Below are positions 9,785-12,068 of a DNA stretch of 43,713 nucleotides, in pieces. Under the pieces are notes generated by a model. The model saw only the letters and a program-made list of their open reading frames with translations. It made no database searches and was not told the origin of the DNA. Position 1 is the first letter of the stretch; each line of letters starts with the position of its first letter. Source of the DNA: Phycisphaera mikurensis NBRC 102666 (GTDB taxonomy: Bacteria; Planctomycetota; Phycisphaerae; Phycisphaerales; SM1A02); assembly GCA_945877905.1 (NCBI GenBank), contig CAMDUT010000003.1:1-43713 (forward strand). The letters are read 5' to 3'. Both the position numbers and the translations under genes were made by a program.

Positions 9785-12037
9785 TCAGGGGCATGCGCCC
9801 CAGCCGGCGAGCAACTCGCCGAGGTCCGCGCCGTCGACGACTGCGTCGCCGTTCAGGTCGAACGCGCATGCCGCGCACGGCCCCCAGTTCGCGAGGAGCT
9901 GTCCGAGGTCCGCGCCGTCCACGCTGCCCGACGAGTCGAAGTCGCCGGGGCACGCGGGCGCCGGGTCGAGCGTCGTGACGTCGACGGAGACGTAGTCGTG
10001 GAAGGTCTCGTCGGCGGAGCGCTCGGCGTAGACCATGAAGCGCACGGTGCCGTCGGCGGCGACGTAGTTGCCGATGTTCGAGCGGATGGCGACGGTCATC
10101 GCCTCGTCGCGGTTACCCGCGTAGCTGTCGGCGAAGCGGTTCTGGCCGATGAGCCCCGCCGCGTCGCCCCACTGCGACTGCGCCACGTCCCACACGTAGA
10201 GCTCGGCCTGGGTGCAGTTGTCCGCGTAGCCCTCCCAGGTGATCCGCAGCTCGTCGATCGTCGCGGGGGCCTCGGCGATTCGCACCCGGAACACGTGGGT
10301 CGCCTCGTTGCCCGCGGAAATCGCCGGCGAGATGTAGCGGTTCGCGTCCGTGTCGCCTCCCGTGGCGTTCGAGGTGGAGAGCGCCGTGTACTGCGCGGCC
10401 GTGAGCGCGGTGCTCACCGGCAGCGAACTCGCGCTCGCGTTGGTCCACGCGGCCGTCTGCGAGCCCGTCACGAAGCGGTCGACGCCCGCACCCGACGCGA
10501 AGTCGTAGCGGGTGCGCGTGCCCGGGCCCACGCGGAACGGGTTGCCCACGGCGATCACGGTATCGCCGTCGGCCGCGCGCGCGGTCACGCGCACGCGCGC
10601 CGCGTCCGAGCGAAGCCCGGCCGGGACGCTCCACTGGTACGAGCCGGAGTCCGGGATCGCGGTCGCGATGTCCGTCCACGTGGTCCCGTCCGTCGAGTAG
10701 GCCAGGTCGACGTTCGCGAGCGCCACGTTGTTCGTGTCGGTCGCGTTCCAGCGGATCTCCTGGACGGCGCCCGCGCGCACCACGGCGCCGCCCTCGGGCA
10801 GCGACACGTGCGCCGCCGGCAGCGCGTTCGCGTAGCGAGGCACCTGCTTCACGATGCAGTGGATGGCGCCCGACGCGCCGATGATGCTCGAGCACTGGAT
10901 CGGCACGAGCGTCACGCCCGGGCCGGCGGCCGCCGTCCACTTGGCGACGGCGTCCGTGTCGCGCGCGTTGTACGCGGAGTTGCCGCCCGGCACGATGCCG
11001 GTCCCGTAGACGGGGATGAAGATCCGGTTGTTCACGCGGAACGCGTTCGCGTACGTGTAGTGCGTCGCGCCGACGTTCCATGCCTGCGGACGGAACACCT
11101 CGAACCCGAGCGCCTGCATGTAGGGCACCGCGTTGTTCGTGACCGAGATCGCGGTCGCGTTGGAGCCGGCGATGAACTCCGAGATGATCACGGTGTCCTC
11201 GTCGACGAGGTACATCCACATGTCGATGTGTCCGGTGCCGTCCACCGAGAAGGGCAGCTGCGGCAGGATGTGCAGCGTGTCGATCCCCTGGAAGGCGTCG
11301 TGGACCTCGCGGACGAGCGCCTCGCTGAACCCCGCGGACGACGGGTTGTCGAGGTTCACGAGCGCCGTGCAGAAGCCCGACCGGTTCGGCCCGGGCTGGA
11401 AGTTGCCGCCCGAGTAGTAGAGGGGCTGGTCGTAGGTGGGCACGCCGAAGGTGCCGTCGCCGGCGATCGTCGGGATGAAGTTGTCGTTCGGGCGGTTGGG
11501 GTAGTAGTGGCTGTCGACCACCGCGAGCGTCCCGTTCTCGAAGACGAAGTGCGGGCCGTAGTCGCGGAGCCAGATCGAGTCGACGGGGGCGACGATGAAG
11601 ACCACCTTCGAGAGGTTGGCGCCGGCCGCGGCGAACGCGCTGGCCGCGGAGGTGGCGGCCGCCTGGTTCGCCACCACCACCCAGGCGATCTCGTCGTTCA
11701 CGGTGCCGGCGGTGAGCGCGCTGACGCACGCCGTGACCACCGAGTTCCAGCTGTTGCCGTACTGGAACATCACGCCGCGGGTGGGCGAGTACTCCGGCGG
11801 GCTCGAGACGAGCGCGGCGTTCGGACGCGACCGCAGGGTGATGCCCGTGGCGCCCGCAAGGTCGACCTTGTAGGGCGTGAGTCGCTGGTTCGGGTCGTAG
11901 GGCGTGCCGCCCTCGCGGACGCGGGTGAGCGTCGAGACCTGTTCCAGCTCCTGTCCCTTCTCCTGGGCGGCGGCGAACGGGGCGGGAACGGCGGCCAGCG
12001 CGGCGAGCGCGACGAAGGCGGGGGTGCGGGTCTTCAT
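9785..12037 (-). CDS. Secreted peptidyl-arginine/agmatine deiminase-like protein with dockerin-type tail
   Basis: A 750-residue multidomain secreted protein. Residues 1-24 are a signal peptide (MKTRTPAFVALAALAAVPAP). Residues about 70-405 form the PAD_porph guanidino-deiminase fold with its catalytic set: WLRDYGPHF (D159), GTGHIDMWMYL (H270, D272) and GAIHCIV (C394). So it should convert arginine or agmatine-type guanidino groups to citrulline/carbamoyl products. About 415-500 is an Ig/fibronectin-like domain (VDLAYSTDGTTWTDIA, SGSYQWSVP). About 505-690 is a beta-sandwich carrying ELRITWEGYADNC. The last 57 residues hold two dockerin-like Ca-binding repeats (GDFDSSGSVDGADLGQLLAN and FDLNGDAVVDGADLGELLAG). 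The in-frame ATG at 12067 would put 10 residues before the signal peptide, so I prefer 12037. Confidence 0.88.
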   Translation of the reverse strand: MKTRTPAFVALAALAAVPAPFAAAQEKGQELEQVSTLTRVREGGTPYDPNQRLTPYKVDLAGATGITLRSRPNAALVSSPPEYSPTRGVMFQYGNSWNSVVTACVSALTAGTVNDEIAWVVVANQAAATSAASAFAAAGANLSKVVFIVAPVDSIWLRDYGPHFVFENGTLAVVDSHYYPNRPNDNFIPTIAGDGTFGVPTYDQPLYYSGGNFQPGPNRSGFCTALVNLDNPSSAGFSEALVREVHDAFQGIDTLHILPQLPFSVDGTGHIDMWMYLVDEDTVIISEFIAGSNATAISVTNNAVPYMQALGFEVFRPQAWNVGATHYTYANAFRVNNRIFIPVYGTGIVPGGNSAYNARDTDAVAKWTAAAGPGVTLVPIQCSSIIGASGAIHCIVKQVPRYANALPAAHVSLPEGGAVVRAGAVQEIRWNATDTNNVALANVDLAYSTDGTTWTDIATAIPDSGSYQWSVPAGLRSDAARVRVTARAADGDTVIAVGNPFRVGPGTRTRYDFASGAGVDRFVTGSQTAAWTNASASSLPVSTALTAAQYTALSTSNATGGDTDANRYISPAISAGNEATHVFRVRIAEAPATIDELRITWEGYADNCTQAELYVWDVAQSQWGDAAGLIGQNRFADSYAGNRDEAMTVAIRSNIGNYVAADGTVRFMVYAERSADETFHDYVSVDVTTLDPAPACPGDFDSSGSVDGADLGQLLANWGPCAACAFDLNGDAVVDGADLGELLAGWGACP

Positions 12038-12062: not shown

Positions 12063-12068
12063 ACCATA
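12063..12068 (-). promoter_or_regulatory. TATGGT -10-like box
   Basis: TATGGT on the - strand, 25 nt before the ATG at 12037. The same hexamer stands upstream of panC and clpC. The leader would be about 18 nt with no clear Shine-Dalgarno. Confidence 0.35.

What the first reader, a model, noticed from the sequence alone, without database searches (positions are those of the whole stretch)
9785..12037. Deiminase secreted with a dockerin-type anchor
A complete guanidino-deiminase domain (D159, H270, C394) is joined to an Ig-like domain, a beta-sandwich and two Ca-binding dockerin-like repeats. Known PAD_porph enzymes act on protein arginines (Porphyromonas) or agmatine. Here the anchor suggests citrullination or agmatine breakdown on the cell surface or on an external scaffold.
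Basis: partly seen in the sequence, partly recalled or inferred. Interest (0 to 1): 0.52.

Follow-up and report, generated by a model that had tools for sequence, protein, structure and literature searches.

The report
Secreted arginine deiminase with shared dockerin-like tail
A freshwater planctomycete encodes a secreted enzyme, related to the gum-disease bacterium's arginine-modifying enzyme, that carries a tail shared by dozens of other exported proteins in the same genome; the enzyme belongs to a distinct subfamily whose substrate pocket is altered.

Summary
The 750-aa ORF at 9785-12037 (-) has a signal-peptide-like N-terminus, a complete PAD_porph deiminase domain, an Ig-like domain, a jelly-roll sandwich and two Ca-loop repeats. 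The deiminase resembles Porphyromonas PPAD most (PDB sequence E 6e-17, Foldseek 1e-28) and fails NCBI's agmatine-deiminase model (23.6 vs 381.8 bits). All five PPAD catalytic residues are kept.

Two things change the reading. (1) The tail is not special to this enzyme. A profile of it finds 75 places in this 2.5-Mb genome, on unrelated exported proteins. It is a relative of NCBI's GC-type dockerin, and no cohesin was found in this genome, so the tail is best read as a general display or sorting module with an unknown receptor. Homologous deiminases elsewhere carry other tails or none. (2) The window enzyme belongs to a subfamily ("A", 51 sequences) that lost PPAD's carboxylate-binding Arg152 (R in 1 of 51; R in 35 of 37 of sister subfamily "B") while keeping Arg154. 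Both subfamilies occur together in 3 of 17 A-bearing genomes of the class sample. A different substrate preference is likely but unproven.

Verdict: new variant of a known kind; moderate interest.

The parts
9785..12037 (-). Whole gene, 750 aa, secreted PAD_porph deiminase with dockerin-like tail (alternative ATG at 12067)
11966..12037 (-). Sec-type signal peptide by eye, residues 1-24 (basic start, Ala-rich core, AAA|Q); no lipobox Cys. No predictor was run
   Evidence: read; pLDDT under 50 for residues 1-36
11885..11929 (-). Conserved segment LTRVREGGTPYDPNQ (residues 37-51), part of the subfamily A N-terminus
   Evidence: consensus
10823..11809 (-). Guanidino-deiminase domain (residues 77-405); catalytic D159, H270, D272, N331, C394
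11486..11512 (-). Substrate loop, residues 176-184: R154 of PPAD kept as R182, R152 replaced by P180
   Evidence: alignment; residue table
10526..10822 (-). Ig-like / FN3-type domain (residues 406-504)
   Evidence: Pfam Kre9_KNH; VIA Z 11-12 to bacterial FN3-type modules
9968..10519 (-). Jelly-roll beta-sandwich (residues 507-690), possibly a glycan-binding or adhesion module
   Evidence: domain model pLDDT 95.9; VIA Z 15.2 to phage phi812 baseplate chain 9eui_D; sub-cut-off Pfam NedA-like galactose-binding 22.4 vs 27.8 bits
9791..9952 (-). Dockerin-like C-terminal tail (residues 696-749), with Cys at both ends
9908..9943 (-). First Ca-binding-type loop (residues 699-710)
9824..9859 (-). Second Ca-binding-type loop (residues 727-738)

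Best explanation
An exported PPAD-like (PAD_porph) deiminase. Inferred route: the Sec system removes the signal peptide, the enzyme crosses the outer membrane, and its C-terminal dockerin-like pair (two Ca loops, probably closed by a disulfide between the end cysteines) retains it on the cell surface or in the matrix through the same unknown receptor that serves dozens of other tailed exported proteins. The Ig-like and jelly-roll domains position the active site on external material. The Cys394/His270/Asp159/Asp272/Asn331 centre turns guanidino groups of extracellular arginine compounds, most likely arginine in peptides or proteins, into ureido groups. Subfamily A, lacking PPAD's Arg152, probably does not depend on a C-terminal arginine carboxylate as PPAD does. 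Shown: domains, catalytic residues, fold, tail distribution, subfamily split. Inferred: export, anchoring, Ca binding, disulfide, substrate.
For: Domain and fold. Catalytic quintet conserved in 62 of 62 aligned sequences. Fails the agmatine-deiminase equivalog (23.6 vs 381.8 bits). Tail is a general module: 75 places in G000, matches in 32 of 37 genomes. In 55 tailed proteins read from 40 stretches plus the window, 48 carry it within 8 residues of the stop, 6 elsewhere and 1 runs off its contig. Cargo is unrelated: GSDH, FGE-sulfatase, RCC1, FG-GAP, GH18+CBM2 among 10 of these scanned, 2 of the 10 giving no family. End cysteines occur together: 33 both, 12 neither, 3 mixed of 48, Fisher p 1.6e-8. 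Deiminase relatives have other tails: of 92, 24 GC-type, 32 other dockerin-like, 6 with one loop, 24 not dockerin, 6 open-ended. Subfamily split.
Against: No activity, localisation or Ca data. The receptor of the tail is unknown. The signal peptide was judged by eye. Loss of Arg152 means the closest characterised enzyme may not predict the substrate. VIA ties PPAD with the Chlorobium structure 1xkn (Z 37.9 vs 38.4), so fold alone does not separate PPAD from small agmatine-deiminase-type proteins. Asp266 aligns (by eye) with Asp220 of plant agmatine iminohydrolase, a residue that holds the agmatine amine, and it is invariant here. Cysteine pairing was tested on related paralogues, so the p-value overstates independence.
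Confidence: 0.6

Rival explanations
1. Extracellular small-molecule deiminase: it acts on free arginine or agmatine for nitrogen scavenging, not on proteins.
For: Fold is shared with agmatine deiminases. Asp266, matching Asp220 of plant agmatine iminohydrolase, is invariant. Arg152, which holds a C-terminal arginine carboxylate in PPAD, is lost. PPAD itself can citrullinate free arginine (PMC4893104 passage). Freshwater Phycisphaerae (Nemodlikiaceae) were inferred to lack the AmtB ammonium channel (PMC6461901 passage).
Against: Agmatine-deiminase model far below cut-off. By-eye comparison: position of Asp89 is Ser154 here, and the channel Trp125 loop is replaced. Separate short PAD_porph proteins scoring about 290-350 bits exist in relatives. 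Ig and jelly-roll domains suggest macromolecular targets.
Confidence: 0.22
2. Part of a cohesin-dockerin complex of the 'planctosome' type proposed for freshwater Phycisphaerae (PMC6461901), with the deiminase plugged into a scaffold.
For: Dockerin-type tail. Some same-genus genomes have cohesin-like proteins. Published hypothesis for Nemodlikiaceae (passage).
Against: No cohesin in this 97.6%-complete genome with two profiles. Of 22 family-f1 genomes with 29 or more tails, 7 have a Pfam cohesin. Cohesin count (0-4) is far below tail count.
Confidence: 0.1
3. The tail is a secretion signal that is removed after export, so the enzyme ends up soluble in the water.
For: 48 of 55 tails are at the extreme C-terminus, as for sorting domains. 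Three secretins are encoded.
Against: 6 of 55 tails are N-terminal or internal, for example before FGE-sulfatase or GH18 domains, which fits a binding module better than a cleaved end signal.
Confidence: 0.15

Closest known systems
Porphyromonas gingivalis peptidylarginine deiminase (PPAD), Pfam PF04371
   Same: Deiminase fold, all five catalytic residues, Trp127 and Arg154 equivalents, Ig-like domain after the catalytic domain, exported with a C-terminal sorting or anchoring domain
   Different: Arg152 replaced by Pro180, Tyr233 by Gly267; extra jelly-roll; dockerin-like tail instead of a T9SS domain; 20-24% identity
Agmatine deiminase / iminohydrolase (AguA, TIGR03380)
   Same: Fold and catalytic residues; Asp at four residues before the catalytic His
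   Different: 23.6 bits against a cut-off of 381.8; no Trp loop; multidomain protein with a signal-peptide-like start
GC-type dockerin domain-anchored proteins (NCBIfam NF041540)
   Same: Paired Ca loops, WG..C end, mostly extreme C-terminal position; 46 of 48 sibling tails match at E<=0.1
   Different: The window's tail itself gives no match at E<=0.1; in the genome the model finds 30 places, 8 over cut-off, against 75 with the local profile
Cellulosomal type I dockerins
   Same: Two 12-residue Ca loops, helices after each
   Different: Likely end-to-end disulfide clasp; no cohesin in the genome; one tail family on many unrelated proteins
centiPAD venom proteins and their bacterial donors (PMC7864903)
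   Same: PPAD-type enzymes with the catalytic five kept and the two specificity residues changed (section read)
   Different: Donor bacteria there are Gammaproteobacteria and Bacteroidetes; no dockerin tail is mentioned in the section read

Membership tests
PAD_porph (PF04371) | Profile match over the curated cut-off | tested here: met
   70.4 bits vs 25, positions 3-321 of 321
PAD_porph (PF04371) | Guanidino-modifying catalytic residues Asp, His, Asp, Asn, Cys | tested here: met
   Invariant in 62 of 62; 92-sequence table
PPAD-type peptidylarginine deiminase | Arg152 and Arg154 that hold a C-terminal arginine carboxylate | tested here: not met
   R154 kept as R182 (91 of 92), R152 is Pro180; R at this position in 1 of 51 subfamily A sequences
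PPAD-type peptidylarginine deiminase | Citrullination of C-terminal peptidyl arginine | not testable with these tools
   needs an assay
Agmatine deiminase (TIGR03380) | Score over the NCBI equivalog cut-off | tested here: not met
   23.6 vs 381.8 bits
Agmatine deiminase (TIGR03380) | Residues holding the agmatine amine (Asp220, Asp89 in plant enzyme) | tested here: inconclusive
   Asp266 present and invariant, Asp89 position is Ser154; comparison by eye with passages
Dockerin | Two Ca-binding loop-helix repeats with the Asp pattern | tested here: met
Dockerin | Curated cut-offs of Pfam Dockerin_1 and NF041540 for the window's own tail | tested here: not met
   15.2 vs 22.9 bits; no NF041540 match at E<=0.1
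Dockerin | Cohesin partner in the genome | tested here: not met
   0 with PF00963 and 0 with the relatives' cohesin profile
Type IX secretion cargo | T9SS machinery in the genome | tested here: inconclusive
   SprA_N 0 of 37, but the control genomes were silent too
PEP-CTERM / exosortase substrate | PEP motif and C-terminal membrane helix | tested here: not met
   Absent from the tail by reading, although an exosortase is encoded

The most novel reading that the evidence does not exclude
Subfamily A is a separate extracellular deiminase specificity: with the Arg152 clamp lost and a set of pocket changes (S176, Y179, P/S180, S209, G267, G269), it deiminates internal arginines or another guanidino group, alongside PPAD-like subfamily B in some of the same genomes; and it is one client of an undescribed planctomycete display system in which about 75 proteins use a dockerin-like tail without a cohesin.
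Probability: 0.3. Interest if true: 0.65.

Novelty: new variant of a known kind. Interest (0 to 1): 0.4.

Why it matters
Citrullination by bacteria is studied mostly in Porphyromonas (my impression from recall and the papers seen). A large, mostly planctomycete family of exported PPAD relatives, split into a subfamily with PPAD's carboxylate clamp and one without, would allow a direct test of what sets specificity. It would also suggest that extracellular deimination is an environmental trait, not only a disease trait. The tail points to a display system with many clients and no known receptor.

Tried and rejected
Convergent pocket switch: L141 and L145 have subfamily A residues in the pocket but fell inside B in the first tree. 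I dropped the idea because holding them with A gave a better likelihood and p-AU 0.743; they may be intermediates.

T9SS: SprA_N found nothing, but neither did the controls, so this says nothing. Exosortase is present in 33 of 37 genomes, own genome included, but the tail has no PEP motif or membrane helix.

Operon context: apart from the deiminase family and ORFs overlapping it, the ORF clusters that include the window span few loci (at most 5), L089 and L093 among them; window neighbours are AdoHcy hydrolase, a DUF2204 protein, a LOG-type protein, an NAD epimerase and a Clp ATPase. No functional link was seen.

Jelly-roll as CBM32: suggested by the NedA-like Pfam match and sialidase rows in the whole-model search, but Pfam stays under cut-off and the separate domain model matched a phage baseplate chain best, so only 'jelly-roll' is claimed. 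Z for this domain was not compared with CBM32 structures directly.

Literature: searches for 'GC-type dockerin', for peptidylarginine deiminase with PAD_porph and with Planctomycet found 0 papers in the held library; agmatine deiminase with Planctomycetes found 6, of which I saw only the listing.

Rows dropped: in the 92-row table I left out a 161-aa fragment at L103 and used 11 of the rows (L028, L030, L031, L032, L035-L037 and the short cytoplasmic-type proteins were not added). Trees left out two rows with long X runs (L107, L143); the second tree also left out L022 and L038. From 78 usable deiminase references I gave 61 plus the window to A2. For the jelly-roll alignment I gave 43 of 49. 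The Pfam cargo scan covered 10 of 55 tailed proteins.

Full report
The gene. The window (72.5% GC) contains an ORF on the minus strand, 9785-12037, of 750 aa. The finding's residue numbers are correct for this start; an in-frame ATG at 12067 is an alternative. The N-terminus reads as a Sec signal peptide ending AAA|Q at residue 24 (by eye, no predictor run). Pfam finds PAD_porph at 80-400 (E 2e-19) and an Ig-like domain at 414-502. The window is a contig of a genome of 2.47 Mb in 201 contigs, 97.6% complete. The nearest named relative is a Planctomycetaceae bacterium MAG, ZE-Oct18-179, with 88% identity over the protein.

The enzyme. Against solved structures the best sequence matches are PPAD entries (E 6e-17 for 4yt9) and the small Chlorobium protein 1xkn is far behind (1e-4). 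NCBI's agmatine deiminase model gives 23.6 bits against a cut-off of 381.8. An AlphaFold model from 62 aligned sequences has mean pLDDT 89.2. Foldseek ranks PPAD first (1.2e-28), then 1xkn and agmatine deiminases; VIA-align ties 1xkn and PPAD at Z about 38 over 304-315 residues. The five PPAD catalytic residues named in PMC4893104 (abstract and passages) correspond to D159, H270, D272, N331 and C394, invariant in the 62 sequences. In a table of 92 sequences the first four are 92 of 92 and the cysteine 91 of 92 with one gap.

The pocket. In PPAD, Arg152 and Arg154 hold the carboxylate of a C-terminal arginine; changing Arg152 to Ala lowered activity on the test substrate BAEE while changing Arg154 did not, and on short peptides both mutants were weaker than wild type. 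Here Arg154 is R182, Arg152 is P180 and Tyr233 is G267, read from the alignment. The family falls into two groups. In A (51 sequences, with the window) the loop reads mostly DSHYY[P/S]xR and the His motif DGTGHID; in B (37) mostly DHTYNRPRPND and DSTQHID. At the Arg152 position there is R in 1 of 51 A and 35 of 37 B sequences. A quick tree gives the A branch 98% and the branch holding B 97% SH-aLRT support, both apart from the agmatine-deiminase-type proteins of relatives. Two sequences (L141, L145) look intermediate and their place is unsettled. In an even sample of 298 genomes of the class, 65 have a match at E<=1e-10; 17 have one at 57% identity or more, which I read as A, and the next are at 41% or less. 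3 of these 17 (G138, G271, G289) also have a second match at 34-40%. In the genome-contig results, records of the same WGS project hold both types in three cases: L108/L137, L115/L138 and L109/L162; these may be some of the same genomes. Co-existence suggests different jobs, though it does not say which.

The rest of the protein. The Ig-like domain resembles bacterial FN3-type modules (VIA Z 11-12). The sandwich at 507-690, folded with the Ig-like domain (pLDDT 95.9), matches a phage phi812 baseplate chain with Z 15.2 over 153 residues. A sub-cut-off NedA-like galactose-binding match hints at glycan binding, no more.

The tail. A profile from 48 own-genome tails finds 75 places in this genome and matches in 32 of 37 genomes; the 23 members of its family f1 have 1 to 156, all but one with 29 or more. 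In 55 tailed proteins read from 40 stretches plus the window, 48 have the tail within 8 residues of the stop, 6 elsewhere, and 1 is cut by the contig end. Ten of them scanned with Pfam gave glucose/sorbosone dehydrogenase, FGE-sulfatase, RCC1, FG-GAP, GH18 with CBM2 and others, with no family for two. The tail profile matches solved dockerins (6kg9 E 1e-6). Of 48 tails, 44 match Pfam Dockerin_1 and 46 NCBI's NF041540 at E<=0.1, but the window's own tail is under both cut-offs. A cysteine just before the first loop and one after the last tryptophan occur together (33 both, 12 neither, 3 mixed; p 1.6e-8), which suggests a disulfide clasp; the paralogues are related, so the p-value is a guide.

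Partner. Pfam cohesin has no candidate here and matches in 8 of 37 genomes. A profile from nine cohesins of relatives also gives 0 here and 10 of 37. So the 'planctosome' model proposed for freshwater Phycisphaerae (PMC6461901, passages) cannot be applied to this genome as it stands; divergent cohesins, or a gap in the assembly, are not excluded. An exosortase and three secretins are encoded. T9SS was not tested usefully.

Tails of relatives. Among 92 deiminases (the window included), 24 end in a GC-type tail, 32 in another dockerin-like pair, 6 show one loop, 24 no dockerin pattern, and 6 run off the contig or into masked sequence. The labels come from my own score and motif rules in that script. 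The fewest changes of these tail states on the tree is 20; within A, GC-type versus not needs 2 (no shuffle control for these two counts). So the catalytic body is conserved while the tail varies between lineages.

Judgement. What it works like: an exported PPAD-type deiminase displayed by a shared tail. Membership: it is a PAD_porph protein; it is not an agmatine deiminase by NCBI's model; it lacks one of PPAD's two specificity arginines, so I do not file it as a PPAD-type C-terminal-arginine enzyme. PPAD-type enzymes with changed specificity residues are already known from centipede venoms (PMC7864903, one section read), and PPAD-type genes were reported to be more widespread than thought (PMC8826395, passages), which limits novelty.

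Noticed in passing
G000 genome, 75 places; for example L051, L053, L054: The dockerin-like tail is near the N-terminus in proteins such as L051, L053 and L054; the one scanned (L051) is an FGE-sulfatase-type protein, and L082 (GH18 plus CBM2) has it internally, so it is not only an end signal.
   Followed up: partly
NF041540 versus the local profile, G000: NCBI's GC-type dockerin model finds 30 places (8 over cut-off) where the local profile finds 75, so annotation probably misses many tailed proteins in this genus.
   Followed up: partly
L047, L042, L044, L048: Same-genus genomes carry cohesin-like secreted proteins; a second ORF in L047 combines an exported N-terminal beta-rich region with a GC-type tail.
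   Followed up: partly
L114, L116: Contigs titled Thermoplasmatales archaeon encode subfamily A deiminases with a different C-terminus ending in a hydrophobic stretch; transfer or mis-binning not resolved.
   Followed up: no
L100: A contig labelled Limnohabitans (Pseudomonadota) carries a freshwater planctomycete-type deiminase with GC-type tail, probably a mis-binned contig.
   Followed up: no
L035 (G032:C1:313645-313926): A subfamily B-like deiminase ORF that lacks much of its middle and its catalytic Cys region, apparently a decayed copy.
   Followed up: no
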